DNA of 34,566 nucleotides from Deltaproteobacteria bacterium. GTDB taxonomy: Bacteria > Desulfobacterota > Desulfobacteria > Desulfobacterales > Desulfatirhabdiaceae. Location: positions 1 through 34,566 of the forward strand of contig JACRBZ010000034.1 of the NCBI GenBank assembly GCA_016219185.1. Reading direction: 5' to 3'. Below the pieces are notes generated by a model. It was not told the origin of the DNA. It saw only the letters and a list, made by a program, of their open reading frames with translations, and did not search any database. This document shows, piece by piece, positions 2,311-30,304 of this stretch. Made by a program: the position numbers and the translations under genes. Every line of letters begins with the position of its first letter. The stretch's first letter is position 1.

Positions 2311-2946
2311 TCAAGGGACGACGAGTGCTGAATCCACTTTTTTTTCTGCCGCATCAATGGTTGCATGGATTCCGGATAGGATCAGGCTCACTTTTGCGCG
2401 GCAGTTTTCCGCAAAGACCGGATCCGCGGTCCCTCCCAGGTTGATGCGAACGTTGTAGGCTGCGGCATATGCCGCCGTTCGAACCAGTTGGGCGGCTGTG
2501 CCGGCATCGGTAATGCAGTTGACGTTTCCTTTTTCCACCACCTCATTCACATGATCGGCCAGTGTCAGCATATGTATCAATGTTTCCAGGGGGACCTCGG
2601 CGGCCTTTCGGTTCGCCTGTTCAATGGCTGTCTTTCGAACCGTCTTTTCTTCCTCCGTTTCCGCTGGCAGCCGCATGGCGGCCACGACCTGGTTATAGGC
2701 CTTTGCATCCGCGTCCATCAGCGCAACGAAGCGCTCGGTCAGGGGATCCGCTTCTTGAATCAGGCTTTCCATGGCATCCCAGTGGGCGCGATATTTTTCC
2801 TTGCCACGGGTCAGCCTGGCCACCATGATGCAAAGAGCCGCGCTCAGCCCGGCGCAAAGGGCCGCCACACTGCCGCCGCCTGGCGCCGGCGAAACCGACG
2901 CCAGTTCCCTGATGAAATCAGACACGGTCAAATCCGCAAGTTTCAT
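2311..2946 (-). CDS. fchA: Formimidoyltetrahydrofolate cyclodeaminase / methenyl-THF cyclohydrolase-type protein
   Basis: A 211-residue protein of the FTCD_C / FchA family. It should release ammonia from 5-formimino-tetrahydrofolate to give 5,10-methenyl-tetrahydrofolate, finishing the one-carbon branch of histidine breakdown. The family signature SPAPGGGSVAALCAGLSAAL is present at about residues 19-38, followed by an all-helical body including ADPLTERFVALMDADAKAY and a C-terminal NVRINLGGTAD. Length matches stand-alone family members. Its ATG overlaps the hutI stop by four bases (ATGA), so translation is probably coupled. It is the last gene of the hut cluster. Confidence is high because both the family signature and the neighbours agree. 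Confidence 0.93.
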   Translation of the reverse strand: MKLADLTVSDFIRELASVSPAPGGGSVAALCAGLSAALCIMVARLTRGKEKYRAHWDAMESLIQEADPLTERFVALMDADAKAYNQVVAAMRLPAETEEEKTVRKTAIEQANRKAAEVPLETLIHMLTLADHVNEVVEKGNVNCITDAGTAAQLVRTAAYAAAYNVRINLGGTADPVFAENCRAKVSLILSGIHATIDAAEKKVDSALVVP

Positions 2947-4205
2947 CGGGTATTCCTTTTCGTGTTCATTCTCTCCCCTTTTTTAAACACCGCCTCAACC
3001 GGCAAAACCCCGGCATGATAGGCCAGAATGGCCGGGGACCCCCCGTCCAGAATCAGAAAATCCGCCTGCTTGCCCGGATCCAGGCTGCCTACCCGATCCG
3101 CCATGCCGATGCTATAAGCGGCATTCAAGGTAGCGGCCGTCAGGGCTTCTTCCGGCGTCAGGCCCATGTTCATCACCGAAAGGCCAAAAACAAAGGGCAT
3201 GGACTCCGTGAAACAGGACCCGGGATTGCAGTCCGTGGCAATGGCCACCGGAACGCCGGCCGCGATCATGTCTCTTGCCCTGGCATAGGGTTTTTGCAGA
3301 CTGTAGGCGGTTCCGGGGAGCAAAACGGCAATGGTCCCGGATTTTGCCATACAAACGATGTTGGCATGGCTTGCGGCCAGCAGATGCTCGGCGGAAACGG
3401 CCCGCAGTTCTGCGGCAAGCCCGGCGGCGCCCATATCGTGGACTTCATCGGCGTGAATCTTCAACCCGAATCCCGCGGAATGCGCCGCCGATAAAATCCT
3501 GCGGCTCTGGTTGACCGAAAAAACGCCGGCTTCGCAGAACACATCACAATACCGGGCAATGCCCTGGCGGCTGACCGCAGGAATCATCTCGTTGATCAGA
3601 AGATCGACATAATCCTCGGGCGCCTTTCGGTATTCTTCCGGAACCGCATGGGCCCCCATGAACGTGGCCACCACGTCCAGAGGTGTCAAGCGGCGGACCC
3701 GGTCGATGACCGAAAGCATTTTGAGTTCCGTCTCGGTATTGAGGCCGTAACCGCTCTTGATTTCAAGGGTGGTGGTTCCAAACCGCAGGGCGGACAATGC
3801 GTTTTCCAGCGTTGCCTCCAGAAGGCCCTCTTCGGATGTTTTCCGGACGGCATTCACCGACGAGAGGATGCCTCCGCCTGCCTTTAAAATATCCAGATAC
3901 GAAGTGCCTTTCAGGCGAAGCCCAAATTCCGCTTCCCGTCTGGCGGCAAAGCACATGTGGGTATGGGGGTCCACAAACCCCGGAATGACGCATTTGCCCA
4001 TGCAGTCCACTTCCTCATCGATCCGCCCGGAATCAATATCTGTCAACATATCGGGCTCGGTTCCGATGCGTTCGATCAGGCCGTCGCGAATCAGCATGGC
4101 TCCGTGCTCAAGGCTTGCCACCCGCCCCTGGAAATTACCGGCCAGAGGGCCGCCATTGTCCACGGGCGTAAAAAAATGCGCATTTCGGATGAGTTTACGA
4201 ATCAC
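2943..4205 (-). CDS. hutI: Imidazolonepropionase
   Basis: A 420-residue amidohydrolase-superfamily enzyme that hydrolyses 4-imidazolone-5-propionate to N-formimino-glutamate. Metal-binding and catalytic elements are visible: DPHTHMCFAARREAEF (HxH motif, about residue 80), SGYGL, HADEVHDMGAA, SAEHLLAAS, and TDCNPGSC near residue 325, all typical of HutI. Full length for the family (400-420). It overlaps the ftcD stop by 11 bases on the 5' side and fchA by 4 bases on the 3' side, so the four hut genes form a tight translationally linked operon. Confidence 0.96.
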   Translation of the reverse strand: MIRKLIRNAHFFTPVDNGGPLAGNFQGRVASLEHGAMLIRDGLIERIGTEPDMLTDIDSGRIDEEVDCMGKCVIPGFVDPHTHMCFAARREAEFGLRLKGTSYLDILKAGGGILSSVNAVRKTSEEGLLEATLENALSALRFGTTTLEIKSGYGLNTETELKMLSVIDRVRRLTPLDVVATFMGAHAVPEEYRKAPEDYVDLLINEMIPAVSRQGIARYCDVFCEAGVFSVNQSRRILSAAHSAGFGLKIHADEVHDMGAAGLAAELRAVSAEHLLAASHANIVCMAKSGTIAVLLPGTAYSLQKPYARARDMIAAGVPVAIATDCNPGSCFTESMPFVFGLSVMNMGLTPEEALTAATLNAAYSIGMADRVGSLDPGKQADFLILDGGSPAILAYHAGVLPVEAVFKKGERMNTKRNTR

Positions 4206-5118
4206 CGTTTTCTCCCGTCATCTCCAGCAGGCGCAGCTCGATCACCTGGCGGGTGTCAAAGCCGGCGATCTGCATATAGTACTCGGCGCTGCTGAGCAAA
4301 GCCTCCGCAGGCACCATGCCGTACACCTCGGTATCAACGATCTCAACCCCCCAGCGCCGGGCTTCCATGCGCACAAACTCCTGGACCCGGTAGAGCGGAT
4401 TCTTCTCGTAATCCACGATATTCAGGCTGACCTGCACCATGCCGCGGCCGGCAAGCGGCAGTCCGATACCCTTGACATGACTGAAACCCCCGCCGGATGC
4501 GCGTGCCGCATGGGCAATGGCCTTTGCCACCTTCAGATCGCTGGTGTTCAGATTGACGTTAAAGGCTACCAGAAACGGGCGAGCACCGATGACCGTGGCC
4601 CCCGCGCTGGGATGGAGAGCGGGCCGGCCCACATCCGGACGGCGCTCCGGCCGATTGATCTCGATTTTCAAGACTTCGTACTGGCCTTTTCGAATGACCT
4701 CCAGTTTTTTCCGCTCCGGATTTCGAGCCGCCTCTTCGTAATAATAAACGGGAATGCCGGTTTCCGCATGAAAACGGCTGCCGAATGCATGGGCCAGGTC
4801 CACGCATTCGGCCATGGTGATGGTTTTAATGGGCGTAAACGGAATCACGTCCACGGCCCCGATTCGCGGATGCCCGCCCCGGTGCTTCTCCATATCGATA
4901 TGGCGGACAGCCACTTTGGCAGCCTCGATCAGGGCATCCTGAATCGGATCGGGTTCTCCGACCAGGCTGACAACCAGGCGGTTATGATCCCTGTCCGCGC
5001 GATCATCGAAGAGATAGCAGCCCTTCTTGTTCCGGAAACAGCCCACTATTGCATCAATGACCTCGGGCCGCCGGCCTTCGCTGAAATTGGGAACGCATTC
5101 AATCAGCTTCCTGGACAT
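4195..5118 (-). CDS. ftcD: Glutamate formimidoyltransferase
   Basis: A 307-residue stand-alone formiminotransferase domain, which moves the formimino group from N-formimino-glutamate to tetrahydrofolate. Signatures are the N-terminus KLIECVPNFSEGRRPEVI and HRGGHPRIGAVDVIPFTP around residues 85-103. The partner cyclodeaminase is a separate gene (2311-2946) rather than the fused bifunctional form of animals. The start ATG lies 6 bases after the hutU stop; the ribosome site AGGAAAAAGGA lies inside the hutU 3' end. Choosing this enzyme means the organism funnels histidine carbon into the folate pool instead of releasing formamide or formate by HutG or HutF. Confidence 0.96.
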   Translation of the reverse strand: MSRKLIECVPNFSEGRRPEVIDAIVGCFRNKKGCYLFDDRADRDHNRLVVSLVGEPDPIQDALIEAAKVAVRHIDMEKHRGGHPRIGAVDVIPFTPIKTITMAECVDLAHAFGSRFHAETGIPVYYYEEAARNPERKKLEVIRKGQYEVLKIEINRPERRPDVGRPALHPSAGATVIGARPFLVAFNVNLNTSDLKVAKAIAHAARASGGGFSHVKGIGLPLAGRGMVQVSLNIVDYEKNPLYRVQEFVRMEARRWGVEIVDTEVYGMVPAEALLSSAEYYMQIAGFDTRQVIELRLLEMTGENGDS

Positions 5119-5124
5119 AACCTG

Positions 5125-7155
5125 TCATCCTTTTTCCTGAAACCGCGAATCCACCAGCAAATGAATCAATTCTTCATCCGGCACATAGGGAATCGTGATG
5201 TGGTCGCCGGTCGGGTTATTGGCATTGTATTCCATGGCAACCGACATGGCATTGGGATTCCGGGCCCAGCTTCGGCGGGCCACCCCTCCCATCACATCCC
5301 AGGAAAGCGCCGAGCGGATGATGTCGTCCACCCGCAGGCTGCCGTCCAGAACCAGCCCGAATCCGCCGTTGATGGCCTTGCCGATGCCCGTGCCGCCCCC
5401 GTTATGAAGCGCCACAAGCGACATGCCCCGGGCGCAGTTGCCGGCAAAGCAGTGGGTTGCCATGTCCGCCGCAACGTTGCTGCCGTCCTTGATATTGGAG
5501 GTCTCCCGGAAAGGCGAATCCGTTCCGCCCGGATCATGGTGATCGCGGCCGATCATGATGGGCCCGACTTCGCCGCTTCGGACCATTTTGTTGAAGGCAA
5601 GGGCAATATCCACCCGGCCCCTGGCATCTTGATAGAGAATTCTGGCCTGGGTTCCCACCACCAGTTGGTTCTTTTGGGCATCCCGGATCCAGTTGTAATT
5701 GTCGCGATCCTCGCTACGGCGGCCCGGATCGATGCAGGCCATGGCCGCCCGGTCGGTTCTGAGCAGATCCTCCGGCTTTCCGCTCAGGCACACCCACCGG
5801 AACGGGCCGTATCCATAGTCGAATATGGGCCCCATGACATCCTCGACATACGAGGGAAAAATGAACCCATCCTTGGTGTCTTTTTTGTTGCGGGCGATTT
5901 CCGTGACCCCGGCATCAAAAACCGCCTTCATAAAGGCATTGCCGTAATCAAAGAAATAAACGCCGCGATCCACCAGGATCTTGATGAGTTCATAATGGCG
6001 GCGAAGGCTTTTGTCCACCAGCACGCTGAATGCTTTGCGGTCACTTGCAAGAAGCGCTGTCCGCTCCGCGAATGTCAGGCCCCGGGGACAGTATCCGCCG
6101 CCGTGGGCCACATGACAGGAGGTCTGATCGGACAACAGATCGATTGCGATGTTTTCCGCCACGGCATATTCGAGAAGATCCACCACGTTTCCGTAAAAGG
6201 CGATGGAAAGCGGCTTTTTCGATTTTCTGGCCGCAAGGGCCCAGTCAAAGACTTCCTTCAGGTCGGAAGACGATTTTTGGACCCAGCCCTGATCTTGCCG
6301 GGTCTTGATCCGGGAGGGATCGACCTCGGCCACGATCGAAACCGCGCCGGCGATCTCGGCGGCCCTGGGCTGCGCCCCGCTCATGCCGCCAAGGCCCGAG
6401 GAGACAAAAAGAATGCCTTTCAGATCCCCGTCCTTTGCGGCAAGGCACTTCAGGCGGCCGGCGTTCAGAAGCGTATTGTAAGTGCCGTGCACGATGCCCT
6501 GCGGCCCGATGTACATCCAACCGCCGGCCGTCATCTGACCGTAGCTGGATGCCCCCATCTGGACCGCCACCTCCCAGTCATCCTCGTTGTCATACACGCC
6601 CACCAGAAGACCGTTGGTGATGATGACCCGCGGGTTGTCCGGCTGCGAGCGGAACAGTCCCAGCGGATGACCGGATGCCACTACCAGGGTCTGGTCTTCG
6701 GTGAGAATTTCCAGGTATTTTTTGATCAGCCGGTACTGCATCCAGTTCTGGCATACGCTCCCGGTTTCCCCGTAAGTCACCAGTTCATACGGGTAGAGCG
6801 CCAGGTCAAAATCCAGGTTGTTGTCGATCATGACCTGAAATGCCTTGCCGGCCAGGCACCGGCCCTTGTAGGCATCCACGGGCCTTGCCTTGATGGCACC
6901 GGGCGGACGGAAGCGGTAGCCGTAAATCCGCCCCCGGGTCATCAGCTCGTTTAAAAATTCCGGAGCCAGAACCCCGTGATGGACTTGCGGGATATACCGA
7001 AGCGCATTTTTCAAGGCCACCCGGGTCTGGTCCCGGGTCAGACGGAAACCCCTGTCCGGCGCCCGCCGGATACCCTTGACAAAATCCGGCATTTCAGGCA
7101 GCTCCGTATCCAACTTAATCGTCATGGCATTGAAGATATCGTCATTATTGATCAT
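5125..7155 (-). CDS. hutU: Urocanate hydratase (long form)
   Basis: A 676-residue urocanase, adding water to urocanate to form imidazolonepropionate with NAD+ as an electrophile. Recognisable blocks: ASGHPLGLF, GQMTAGGWMYIGPQGIVHGT, FVSSGLGGMSGAQPRAAEI (NAD-binding region), SDQTSCHVAHGGGYCPRGLT, IGRDHHDPGGTDSPFRET and SLVALHNGGGTGIGKAINGG. It is about 120 residues longer than the common 550-560-residue enzyme and fits the longer urocanase variant seen in several anaerobes. First gene of the hut operon; a GGGGGG stretch precedes the ATG. No hutH (histidine ammonia-lyase) is adjacent. Confidence 0.96.
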   Translation of the reverse strand: MINNDDIFNAMTIKLDTELPEMPDFVKGIRRAPDRGFRLTRDQTRVALKNALRYIPQVHHGVLAPEFLNELMTRGRIYGYRFRPPGAIKARPVDAYKGRCLAGKAFQVMIDNNLDFDLALYPYELVTYGETGSVCQNWMQYRLIKKYLEILTEDQTLVVASGHPLGLFRSQPDNPRVIITNGLLVGVYDNEDDWEVAVQMGASSYGQMTAGGWMYIGPQGIVHGTYNTLLNAGRLKCLAAKDGDLKGILFVSSGLGGMSGAQPRAAEIAGAVSIVAEVDPSRIKTRQDQGWVQKSSSDLKEVFDWALAARKSKKPLSIAFYGNVVDLLEYAVAENIAIDLLSDQTSCHVAHGGGYCPRGLTFAERTALLASDRKAFSVLVDKSLRRHYELIKILVDRGVYFFDYGNAFMKAVFDAGVTEIARNKKDTKDGFIFPSYVEDVMGPIFDYGYGPFRWVCLSGKPEDLLRTDRAAMACIDPGRRSEDRDNYNWIRDAQKNQLVVGTQARILYQDARGRVDIALAFNKMVRSGEVGPIMIGRDHHDPGGTDSPFRETSNIKDGSNVAADMATHCFAGNCARGMSLVALHNGGGTGIGKAINGGFGLVLDGSLRVDDIIRSALSWDVMGGVARRSWARNPNAMSVAMEYNANNPTGDHITIPYVPDEELIHLLVDSRFQEKG

Positions 7156-10368: not shown

Positions 10369-11124
10369 TCAATCCTCCTGGCTGAATGAAAAAATAGCGC
10401 TCTGAATAATTTTTGTGACCTTGCCCATCTGCTCCGCTGTCATGTATGCCCCGCGAAGCCTGTGAACCTGCTTTCGATACTCCCTTGCATGTTCTTCCGA
10501 CCAGAAGAAGACGCTCTGCCTTCAGAAGGCATTGATAATGCTTTCTTCTTCAAGTTTAAGAAGATTGATATCGGGTACGAAGACGATCGGGGCGCACCCA
10601 TTTTCTTTCACATGACAGTTAAGATCGCTGTCGATCTCAATTTCCATTTCTCTGGCGCAGTGGGCACATTCCGTACGGATAACGATTGATACGAATTCTT
10701 TTCTGAGTCGCCCTTGCACGAAGGGCGTTGCGAACGCGTCGGCTGCTCAGGCCGCGTAAAGCTGCTCGCCGGTATGAAACGTCACATGGTGAGGCGTCTT
10801 TTCAACCGTCACGGGATAGGCCCACTCGATTTCACCCCGGGAGTTTCTGAAAATAAAGGTCATGTGTGATTCCAGGTCATCCAGGATGGCGATTACCCGC
10901 TCGACGGGAATATTCAATGCATTCGAAATGAATTCCGGCGGCAGCGGTTTTCCTGCAATCGGAAGTTCCCGGACCGCGAAATGGTGTATCAGCCGATGTT
11001 CCTCGGTCATAAAAGCGAGGTGGTCCGCGAATCCCTTTTTTCCATTGGCAATCTGCTTTTCCCATAAGAACGGCGGAACACTGAGCATGTACCGCCACAA
11101 TCCCATCATGAGTTTATTTTTCAT
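10369..11124 (-). CDS. MerB-type organomercurial lyase homologue, predicted selenoprotein with two Sec (U126, U201)
   Basis: A 251-residue frame is open from ATG 11124 to TGA 10369 if TGA codons at 10747-10749 and 10522-10524 are decoded as selenocysteine. The ATG follows AGGAG by 9 bases. Residues ~45-110 form the MerB-like helical N-terminal region (PPEFISNALNIPVERVIAIL, then TPHHVTFHTGEQLYAA). MerB carries LYAWC(96)ALD(99); here the same place reads LYAA-U126-AAD129. TECAHCAREMEIEI aligns with the Cys117 region. MerB's F-C159 block followed by HFFAS aligns with F-U201-RQSVFFWS. So both catalytic cysteines are replaced by UGA and the catalytic aspartate is kept. The family breaks carbon-mercury bonds by protonolysis. 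The alternative, a pseudogene with two nonsense mutations, would need both to be TGA and both to hit catalytic positions in an otherwise intact frame. Substrate is not proven; no merA or merT is nearby. Confidence 0.85.
10492..10509 (-). promoter_or_regulatory. Candidate SECIS hairpin for the second UGA (U201)
   Basis: Twelve bases after the UGA at 10524-10522 the mRNA forms a stem UUCUUC/GAAGAA with loop UGGUCG. If the U-G pair closes, the loop is GGUC, which resembles the apical loop of the E. coli fdhF SECIS. The loop begins 18 bases after the UGA and has G in its second position, meeting the usual bacterial SECIS rules (loop 16-37 bases downstream, G among the first two loop bases). Confidence 0.7.
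10709..10727 (-). promoter_or_regulatory. Candidate SECIS hairpin for the first UGA (U126)
   Basis: Nineteen bases after the UGA at 10749-10747 the mRNA forms a perfect 7-bp stem CGCCCUU/AAGGGCG with a five-base loop CGUGC. The loop starts 26 bases after the UGA and has G in its second position, as expected for a bacterial SECIS element bound by SelB. The hairpin lies entirely inside the coding sequence. Confidence 0.7.
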
Positions 11125-11192
11125 CGTATGGATCTCCTGTTTATTGCCGTGATGTTAACACAACCCCCTATATATAGAATGCAACCCAAAAA

Positions 11193-11726
11193 TCAGGTCC
11201 GGGACAATTGACGGATCAGCGCGATCTCTTTGCCGTCAATGCCAAGCCCTTCGAGAAACTCCTGGTGCAGCAAAGGCGATCGTTTTTCAAACTCCTGATG
11301 CCATTTCTCCATTCCCTTGTCGTCAAGACCAACAGCTCGAAGCAGGGCGATCCATCCATCCTTGTCCATGAAGGGAATCCGTTCACGAAGCGAAGTGTCT
11401 CCCAGCATGCGGATAATCACCTGCTGCTGTTCCCGCAGGCCGTTGATCTCCTTTCCGAGGGCCAGCAAACGTTTCTCCAGGATATCCCGCGCGCCGCTCT
11501 GCGGAGATTCGAGGATTTCATGGATTGACGCCATGGAGAGCCCGACCTGGCGGTACATGCAGATCAACTGCAGCCGATTGCAATCTTCCCGCGTGTATCT
11601 CCGGTAGTTTGCAGGGCTTCTCCCCGATGGCCGCAGAAGACCGATCGAATCATAATAAAGGAGCGTGCTCCGGGAAAGACCGAATTGTTTGGCAAGTTGG
11701 CCGATGGTCATTGTTGTCGATGTCAT
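11193..11726 (-). CDS. MerR-family transcriptional regulator
   Basis: A 177-residue MerR-type regulator. The N-terminal winged helix-turn-helix is clear (MTIGQLAKQFGLSRSTLLYYDSIGLL, then YRRYTREDCNRLQLI), followed by the dimerisation helix with ILEKRLLALGKEINGLREQQQ. The mercury-binding cysteines of true MerR (82, 117, 126) are absent; the only cysteines are two in the DNA-binding half. It therefore probably senses something other than Hg(II) by the classical site. It is longer than MerR (144) and ends with an unassigned ~60-residue acidic helical region. The gene lies 68 bases upstream of, and codirectional with, the MerB-type gene, which suggests it controls that gene and itself. A TCAGGA ribosome site lies upstream of the ATG. 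Confidence 0.93.
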   Translation of the reverse strand: MTSTTMTIGQLAKQFGLSRSTLLYYDSIGLLRPSGRSPANYRRYTREDCNRLQLICMYRQVGLSMASIHEILESPQSGARDILEKRLLALGKEINGLREQQQVIIRMLGDTSLRERIPFMDKDGWIALLRAVGLDDKGMEKWHQEFEKRSPLLHQEFLEGLGIDGKEIALIRQLSRT

Positions 11727-29459: not shown

Positions 29460-29759
29460 TCATATCAGAATTCCATTTTTCATTACTTCATCTAAAAAAC
29501 CGCTTTCGTCATTACTTTTTTCCAAAATAACAGGTTCTATTCTGTCGTCCACTTCTCTTCTAATTCTCCATAACAAAGGTCTTGTTGAAAAGAAATCCCC
29601 CTGCATTTCATCAACAACAATCGCAACATCCACATCACTGTCTTCTCTCTGATTTCCTTTTGCATAAGATCCGAATAAAATCATCTTATCAAATGACATT
29701 TCCTGTGATAGAAGCTTTTTATATCTTTTAAGTTTTATAATAACTTCCGTTTTATCCAT
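29460..29759 (-). CDS. Minimal nucleotidyltransferase (MNT) domain protein
   Basis: A 99-residue nucleotidyltransferase with the GSX10DXD motif (ILFGSYAKGNQREDSDVDVA) and a third acidic candidate in DDRIEPVIL, so the catalytic site looks intact. In MNT/HEPN pairs the MNT protein adds AMP to the HEPN toxin or blocks it. It overlaps the upstream HEPN gene by 25 bases, forming a two-gene unit. The pair is AT-richer than the neighbouring ABC genes, suggesting recent acquisition. It converges with the ABC operon across 11 bases. Confidence 0.9.
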   Translation of the reverse strand: MDKTEVIIKLKRYKKLLSQEMSFDKMILFGSYAKGNQREDSDVDVAIVVDEMQGDFFSTRPLLWRIRREVDDRIEPVILEKSNDESGFLDEVMKNGILI

Positions 29760-30124
29760 ATCTGAAGTTCCCTGGAGTTATCCAAAATCTCTTGACATCT
29801 TTCTTCTGTTAAACTTCTCATTAATTGTTCTTTATGGGTTGGATATCTGCATTCAATATTCATTGGTTCCAGCATATCGATAAAATTCTTTTGACTTTCT
29901 GAAAAATTCTCATAGATTTTTGCTTTCTTTGCAAGGTATGAAAGACTATGAGAAAATGGTGCTGTCTCGCCGTTCATTTTGATAAAATATGCTTTAAGTA
30001 TTTTTTCGACAGACTGATGAGACATAAACCCCACATAAAGATATCGCTTACTTTTCAACATTGCATCAGCGGTCTCAATATCGTAGTCTGACATTTCTCT
30101 CCAATAACTTATTTGATCTGACAT
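29735..30124 (-). CDS. HEPN domain protein
   Basis: A 129-residue helical HEPN protein of the COG2250 type (SHQSVEKILKAYFIKMNGE, then FSHSLSYLAKKA). The classical RNase motif R-X4-6-H is not clearly present: the best candidate is ECRYPTHKE with a three-residue gap. It may therefore be a non-nucleolytic HEPN or a degenerate toxin. Start at ATG 30124; a GTG 15 bases upstream is possible. Partner of the MNT protein. Confidence 0.85.
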   Translation of the reverse strand: MSDQISYWREMSDYDIETADAMLKSKRYLYVGFMSHQSVEKILKAYFIKMNGETAPFSHSLSYLAKKAKIYENFSESQKNFIDMLEPMNIECRYPTHKEQLMRSLTEERCQEILDNSRELQIWIKRKLL

Positions 30125-30304
30125 CGCATATACCTGCACTCGATTAATGATTCATTTTCCCGAACAACGCGCACCTGATCGCCCTCTACGACATATCCCT
30201 CGCACGTTAACGATCTATCCAAGCTCCCTTTCGATCCTTTCCTTGATTGTGTTCCTGTGCTGTTTCGTCCAGGCACCAATTGCATTGAATTGGGAAGGGG
30301 ATTT

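What the first reader, a model, noticed from the sequence alone, without database searches (positions are those of the whole stretch)
10369..11124. MerB-type organomercurial lyase with selenocysteine predicted at both catalytic cysteine positions
Seen in the sequence: one minus-strand frame with MerB features is interrupted only by two TGA codons (10747-10749 and 10522-10524). The first falls in LYAA-TGA-AAD, matching MerB LYAWC96-ALD99. The second falls in NAF-TGA-RQSVFFWS, matching the F-C159 block followed by HFFAS. Known: MerB cleaves carbon-mercury bonds with Cys96, Cys159 and Asp99. Inference: Sec replaces both thiols, and selenolates bind mercury far more tightly than thiolates, so this could be a specialised demethylase, a scavenger, or an enzyme for another organometal or organometalloid. 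Normal annotation would split it into two small hypotheticals and miss the C-terminus. UGA is a normal stop in neighbouring genes, so a recoded genetic code does not explain it. I cannot tell whether such proteins are already described.
Basis: partly seen in the sequence, partly recalled or inferred. Interest (0 to 1): 0.95.

Follow-up and report, generated by a model that had tools for sequence, protein, structure and literature searches.

The report
MerB-type lyase with two selenocysteines
A bacterial gene encodes a relative of MerB, the enzyme that breaks methylmercury apart, in which both active-site cysteines are predicted to be replaced by selenocysteine; the same pair of UGA codons recurs in 72 sampled genomes, so a selenium-based, likely metal-carbon-cleaving enzyme has probably been overlooked because gene finders read the UGA codons as stops.

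Summary
A minus-strand frame (11124-10369) matches Pfam MerB and is interrupted by exactly two TGA codons, at the positions of MerB Cys96 and Cys159; Asp99 is kept. It is not a lone oddity. Of 121 MerB-family matches in two genome samples, 85 have TGA at both positions, 23 Cys/Cys, 6 Cys/TGA, no intact one TGA/Cys; 7 are partial or broken. All 80 fetched loci nearest to the window gene (best 80 of 141) are TGA/TGA. The genome has selA, selB, tRNA-Sec and three selD. A hairpin follows each TGA, with frozen codons (CCC and GGG in 80 of 80 loci, about a third elsewhere). A single-Sec relative, SaoL (Cys/Sec), is known; the Sec/Sec form is in no inventory or NCBIfam model I could read, but two key papers were not readable. 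The genome has HgcA over its cut-off and no MerA over its cut-off. Double recoding is close to certain from sequence; carbon-mercury cleavage by two selenolates is likely but untested; another organometal, or metal scavenging, stays open. Verdict: new variant of a known kind, widespread and directly testable.

The parts
10369..11124 (-). MerB-family gene read through two in-frame TGA codons (251 residues, own terminator TGA 10369-10371)
   Evidence: frame and translation; Pfam MerB 56.3 bits against cut-off 27
10747..10749 (-). TGA codon, predicted Sec126, at the place of MerB Cys96
   Evidence: 80 of 80 nearest fetched relatives
10738..10740 (-). codon of Asp129, at the place of MerB Asp99 (predicted proton donor)
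   Evidence: Asp in 81 of 81 aligned rows
10709..10727 (-). hairpin after the first TGA, predicted bSECIS (7 bp, loop CGTGC)
10522..10524 (-). TGA codon, predicted Sec201, at the place of MerB Cys159
   Evidence: 80 of 80 nearest fetched relatives
10492..10509 (-). hairpin after the second TGA, predicted bSECIS (7 bp core, loop GGTC)
11134..11138 (-). AGGAG, likely ribosome-binding site
   Evidence: sequence; by eye
11193..11726 (-). MerR-family regulator gene 68 bases upstream, ends in TGA; possible regulator of the lyase gene (untested)
   Evidence: Pfam MerR_1 5.7e-18; a similar gene lies beside 6 other loci of the same clade

Best explanation
The gene at 10369-11124 (minus strand) encodes a MerB-family protein that is predicted to carry selenocysteine at both catalytic cysteine positions (residues 126 and 201) and that likely breaks carbon-mercury bonds the way MerB does, with two selenolates in place of two thiolates. 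Shown by sequence: the family match, the two TGA codons at the catalytic columns, Asp129 at the proton-donor position, a hairpin with frozen codons after each TGA, and genes for the Sec machinery in the genome. Inferred: both UGAs are read as Sec; both selenols would be ionised at neutral pH and would grip R-Hg+ very tightly; Asp129 would deliver the proton that releases R-H; Hg(II) would then leave to cell thiols, sulfide or selenide, since no MerA over the cut-off was found in this genome. My estimate is about 0.95 for double Sec alone and about 0.5 for double Sec plus carbon-mercury lyase. The order of replacement looks fixed: Sec at 159 occurs alone (SaoL and others), Sec at 96 was seen in intact genes only together with Sec at 159.
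For: Family and fold. Recurrence: 85 Sec/Sec, 23 Cys/Cys, 6 Cys/Sec, 0 intact Sec/Cys among 121 matches, 7 set aside; 80 of 80 nearest fetched loci. Sec machinery: SelA, tRNA-Sec, SelB, three SelD with a TGA each; SelA in 74 of 77 genomes with a Sec-type gene. Hairpins: first site 76 of 85 Sec/Sec against 6 of 23 Cys/Cys; second site 84 of 85 against 13 of 23, loop at 19 nt in 76 of 85 against 2 of 23 (Fisher tests). Codon freeze in the hairpins. Selection on all three segments. MerA over the cut-off in 3 of 72 Sec/Sec genomes and not in this one; HgcA in this one.
Against: No experiment. No recognised mer genes beside the gene; nearest relatives have varied neighbours. SelA is also in 17 of 20 genomes with Cys/Cys forms only, so it does not discriminate. 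Folding energy against synonymous shuffles is only slightly low at the first site (median z -0.21) and moderately at the second (-0.73), and 13 of 23 Cys/Cys genes also pass the loose hairpin test at the second site. 50 of 85 Sec/Sec genes have Glu in place of Asp99 (the window has Asp). A few full-length relatives have Ser/Cys (2) or Gly/Leu (1), and two that end at residue 200 have Trp or Arg at 126. Very tight Hg binding could block turnover. The protein falls below NCBI's cut-offs for MerB proper.
Confidence: 0.5

Rival explanations
1. Double-Sec lyase for another organometal or organometalloid (for example tin, lead, arsenic or selenium compounds, or an organometallic cofactor): same bond-breaking chemistry, not mercury detoxification.
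For: The single-Sec relative SaoL sits in the Sec-assisted organometallic (SAO) system whose substrate is unsettled in what I read (PMC13188914 passages); no mer genes were recognised beside the gene; MerA over the cut-off in only 3 of 72 Sec/Sec genomes.
Against: Asp129 and both chalcogen positions follow organomercurial lyase; this genome has HgcA over its cut-off, a likely own source of methylmercury.
Confidence: 0.27
2. Not an enzyme: a double-selenolate scavenger or sensor that holds mercury or another soft metal.
For: Two selenolates would bind Hg very tightly (established chemistry, recalled); recurrent MerR-like or (by eye) MarR-like genes upstream of some relatives.
Against: The proton-donor Asp is kept in 81 of 81 aligned rows of the clade; a scavenger would not need it.
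Confidence: 0.16
3. No Sec: a pseudogene, UGA read as Trp or another residue in these genomes, or a functional 125-residue truncated protein.
For: 42 of 120 listed homologues are stored as full-length proteins with Trp at both positions, most plausibly from gene calling with code 4.
Against: The same gene and its MerR neighbour end in TGA. Purifying selection on all three segments. TGA only at the two catalytic columns. Frozen hairpin codons. Relatives have Cys, not Trp, there.
Confidence: 0.04

Closest known systems
SaoL, MerB-like organometallic lyase (NCBIfam NF040728)
   Same: MerB family; Sec at the Cys159 position. Three of my six Cys/Sec rows pass its cut-off (165, 175 and 149 bits against 140) and their Sec lies in the same alignment column as the window's second TGA.
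   Different: One Sec in a CU motif (PMC13188914 table) and Cys at 96. The window protein has two TGA, Phe before the second, and scores 43 bits against the cut-off of 140.
MerB organomercurial lyase (PDB 3f0o, 3f2f; NCBIfam NF009710, NF033555)
   Different: TGA in place of both catalytic Cys; about 18% identity; below the NCBIfam cut-offs (51 of 193 and 44 of 200 bits).
MerB2 (PDB 5c17)
   Different: Solved MerB2 is a Cys enzyme with Ser at 99 (recalled); whether the review's entry has one or two Sec is not stated in what I saw.
Double-Sec metal-related families in the inventory (MbdU NF045648; metal-binding protein NF041115)
   Same: Listed prokaryotic selenoproteins with two Sec that bear metal-binding names (PMC13188914 table).
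   Different: No NCBIfam match of the MerB-family proteins I scanned to these families. Here the two Sec lie 75 residues apart.

Membership tests
MerB superfamily (Pfam PF03243) | profile match over the curated cut-off | tested here: met
   56.3 bits against 27, with Cys written for TGA; 40.3 bits in the genome search with stops left in
MerB superfamily (Pfam PF03243) | MerB fold | tested here: met
organomercurial lyase MerB proper | Cys at 96 and 159 | tested here: not met
   TGA at both; met only if Sec is accepted as the equivalent
organomercurial lyase MerB proper | Asp99 and Cys117 | tested here: met
   Asp129 and Cys153 align there; each in 81 of 81 aligned rows
organomercurial lyase MerB proper | NCBIfam cut-offs NF009710 and NF033555 | tested here: not met
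   50.8 of 193 and 43.6 of 200 bits
organomercurial lyase MerB proper | cleaves carbon-mercury bonds | not testable with these tools
   needs an anoxic enzyme assay
SaoL (NF040728) | curated cut-off 140 bits | tested here: not met
   43.3 bits
SaoL (NF040728) | one Sec in a CU motif | tested here: not met
   two TGA, and Phe before the second; motif from PMC13188914
SaoL (NF040728) | Sao genes alongside | tested here: not met
   no Sao family match in the four window proteins besides the lyase that were scanned; a Sao operon lies elsewhere in this genome, on contig 97
bacterial selenoprotein | in-frame TGA at a Cys position with conserved sequence on both sides | tested here: met
bacterial selenoprotein | selA, selB, selC (tRNA-Sec) and selD in the genome | tested here: met
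bacterial selenoprotein | bSECIS-like hairpin after each TGA | tested here: met
   in silico only, by a simple rule written here after recalled bSECIS criteria; shuffle test weak
bacterial selenoprotein | selenium in the protein | not testable with these tools
   needs 75Se labelling or mass spectrometry

The most novel reading that the evidence does not exclude
A widespread, unlisted lineage of MerB enzymes has swapped both mercury-binding thiolates for selenolates, position 159 first and 96 only afterwards, and demethylates methylmercury inside anaerobes that make methylmercury themselves (HgcA) and lack MerA: a selenium-driven demethylation route invisible to surveys that require cysteine.
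Probability: 0.33. Interest if true: 0.93.

Novelty: new variant of a known kind. Interest (0 to 1): 0.82.

Why it matters
A metal-carbon-cleaving site built from two selenolates is not in the inventory I could read (119 families or subfamilies; SaoL, with one Sec, is its only MerB entry). If active, it would give a natural test of what selenium adds at a metal-carbon cleavage site, with Cys/Cys, Cys/Sec and Sec/Sec relatives to compare. It would also bear on merB surveys: the one I read screened for Cys96 and Cys159 and reported that none of the genomes with MerB but no MerA codes for HgcAB (PMC8261052 passages), whereas 28 of 45 Sec/Sec genomes in my order sample have HgcA over the cut-off (my count) and only one of those 28 has MerA over the cut-off.

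Tried and rejected
Independent origins of Sec/Sec: a quick tree splits these rows into three well-supported groups, but the AU test does not reject one clade (p 0.82; the constrained tree was even better by 28.6 log units), so I claim no repeated origin.

Synonymous codon shuffles as proof of RNA-level selection: weak; I rely on the Cys/Cys control and the codon freeze. The counts (156 and 164 of 165 sites against 606 of 1500 control codons) hold some loci twice, because the genome search and genome contigs sets overlap; I quote in preference.

Conserved operon: not found. A gene that looks MarR-like by eye (13 loci, three of them one contig fetched twice; not profile-tested) and the MerR-like gene (7 loci, the window included) recur upstream, but of 71 nearest relatives with more than 700 bases upstream only 8 and 5 have them, at most.

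HgcA link: 28 of 45 Sec/Sec genomes against 134 of 344 others in the order sample (positives among the 45 counted by me at E below 1e-80, total 162 from the tally; Fisher p 0.004). Kinship and genome size are not controlled, so it is only a hint.

Rows set aside before the 85/23/6/0 tally (7 of 121): L050 (TAG, fragment), L055 (first site lost), L066 and L072 (partial), L098 (TAA; Ser/Cys), L137 and L139 (look frame-shifted after the first TGA; L137 aligned as TGA/Cys). The clade labels put one row (L028) in the wrong clade; no count here uses them.

PHROGs: no match for the window protein. Plasmids: no match. Rfam at gathering score and ARAGORN found nothing in the window. VIA-align lists no family besides MerB well above the background.

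Literature: searches (listings only, unless named next). Seen as passages: PMC9312934, PMC7435645, PMC8261052, PMC4525700, PMC10418091. PMC13188914: passages and parts 1 and 2 of 3 of section 7 (its whole Table 1). PMC5029168 and PMC12013277: no hit for MerB, mercur- or lyase. PMC2398784: none for MerB or lyase, one mercur- passage that lists mercuric transport proteins. The two Haft papers (PMC9879109, PMC12013261) are not held, so I cannot exclude that the Sec/Sec form is mentioned there.

Full report

Not a lone case. The genome of the window (unnamed) has three MerB-family genes: this one, a second with TGA at both catalytic columns on contig 21, and a Cys/Cys one on contig 97. In an order-level sample of 389 genomes, 55 have a MerB match; of 63 matches, 50 are Sec/Sec, 8 Cys/Cys, 1 Cys/Sec and 4 partial or broken. 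In a phylum-level sample of 395 genomes, 50 have a match; of the 58 matches not already counted, 35 are Sec/Sec, 15 Cys/Cys, 5 Cys/Sec and 3 broken. 'Sec' in these counts means a TGA codon. The 85 Sec/Sec genes come from 72 genomes, eleven of which hold more than one. No intact gene has Sec at 96 and Cys at 159; the one row aligned that way (L137) looks frame-shifted. A scan of named genomes with the window's own clade found 141 relatives; all 80 that were kept are TGA/TGA. Their record titles name Desulfobacterales and other Deltaproteobacteria, Chloroflexi (Anaerolineae, Dehalococcoidia), Acidobacteria, Nitrospirae, Rokubacteria, Binatia and others; these are metagenome-assembled genomes as a rule.

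In a protein database, 120 of 134 homologues were listed: 64 stop exactly at residue 125 and 7 at residue 200; of these 7, 5 have Cys at 126 (which would fit Cys/Sec, though I did not see their DNA), 1 Trp and 1 Arg. 42 carry Trp at both positions, most plausibly from gene calling with code 4; 2 have Ser/Cys and 1 Gly/Leu; 1 ends elsewhere and 3 leave the frame near the first site.

Why Sec. The genome has SelA, SelB at 375 bits against a cut-off of 242, a tRNA-Sec at 77 bits against 47, and three SelD, each with a TGA of its own. SelA is found in 74 of 77 genomes with a Sec-type gene (72 Sec/Sec, 5 Cys/Sec only); the three misses are 60 to 83% complete. Among genomes with Cys/Cys forms only it is found in 17 of 20, so it supports but does not discriminate. 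Selection against amino-acid change holds before, between and after the TGAs. A hairpin with G among the first two loop bases follows the first TGA in 76 of 85 Sec/Sec genes but the Cys codon in only 6 of 23 Cys/Cys genes, and the second in 84 of 85 against 13 of 23; the second loop starts 19 nt after the TGA in 76 of 85 against 2 of 23. In Cys/Sec genes the hairpin is seen after the Sec site in 5 of 6 and after the Cys site in 2 of 6. The five columns with the largest codon excess lie in these hairpins: Ser209 (TCA, 90% of 80, overall 17%; the window itself has TCG), Gly138 (GGG, 80 of 80, overall 30%), Pro134 (CCC, 80 of 80, overall 33%), Val136 (GTG, 80 of 80, overall 38%) and Gln137 (CAA, 89%, overall 45%), while in the ten other conserved Gly and Pro columns the top codon reaches 29 to 55%. 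Total folding energy against synonymous shuffles gives weaker support.

How it likely works (inferred). In MerB, Cys96, Cys159 and Asp99 coordinate mercury and Asp99 assists proton transfer (PMC4525700 passages). With Sec at both places the selenolates would be ionised at neutral pH, bind R-Hg+ more tightly and weaken the Hg-C bond (recalled chemistry); Asp129, Asp in 81 of 81 aligned rows, would protonate the carbon. Tighter binding makes product release the likely bottleneck, to be met by thiols, sulfide or selenide, as MerA over the cut-off is found in only 3 of 72 Sec/Sec genomes and not in this one (394 bits against 454). 50 of 85 Sec/Sec genes, among them the contig 21 copy, have Glu in place of Asp99; an assay should compare them.

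Setting. No mer genes were recognised beside the gene. HgcA over its cut-off is present in this genome and in 28 of 45 Sec/Sec genomes of the order sample, against 134 of 344 other genomes; kinship is not controlled. A published survey that screened for Cys96 and Cys159 saw no HgcAB in genomes with MerB but no MerA (PMC8261052 passages); genes like this one would escape such a filter. On contig 97 the Cys/Cys relative lies in a Sao-type operon (SaoX and SaoC over their cut-offs); none of the three MerB-family proteins of this genome passes the SaoL cut-off.

Known and new. SaoL is a known MerB-like selenoprotein with one Sec, and three of my six Cys/Sec rows pass its cut-off. The window protein does not. 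The 2026 inventory of 119 prokaryotic selenoprotein families or subfamilies has SaoL as its only MerB entry; it lists several two-Sec families, among them metal-binding MbdU, to which the MerB-family proteins I scanned show no match. So Sec at 159 is known, and Sec at both catalytic positions appears new within what I could read. Two papers by Haft and colleagues were not readable.

Evolution. Sec/Sec rows form three groups in a quick tree, but a single clade is not rejected. The window's gene and the contig 21 gene lie in different groups.

Noticed in passing
L002 (G000:C97:18858-22226): A Sao-type operon in the same genome: SaoX (501 bits against 300) and SaoC (167 against 80; ends in Cys-Cys) pass their cut-offs, SaoE and SaoB stretches match below theirs (both cut by the locus); its MerB-like gene is Cys/Cys and below the SaoL cut-off.
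   Followed up: partly
L229, L230, L231 (G000:C75, C53, C97): Three SelD genes, each over the cut-off and each with one in-frame TGA.
   Followed up: no
G000:C99:72361-73749: A MerA-related reductase frame below the MerA cut-off with one in-frame TGA, a further selenoprotein candidate.
   Followed up: no
P0003-P0020 and others, 42 of 120 listed proteins: Stored full-length relatives carry Trp at both Sec positions, most plausibly because gene callers used code 4; a possible handle for finding other misread selenoproteins.
   Followed up: no
L018, L093, L097, L119, L132 and others: A Cys/Cys MerB-like group, with one Cys/Sec member (L119), lies beside a gene that looks flavodoxin-like by eye in 11 loci.
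   Followed up: no
2311-7155: By eye, a histidine-degradation gene set (imidazolonepropionase, urocanate hydratase, formiminotransferase and cyclodeaminase); not profile-tested, as one search failed.
   Followed up: no
29460-30139: By eye, a nucleotidyltransferase/HEPN-type toxin-antitoxin-like pair; not tested.
   Followed up: no
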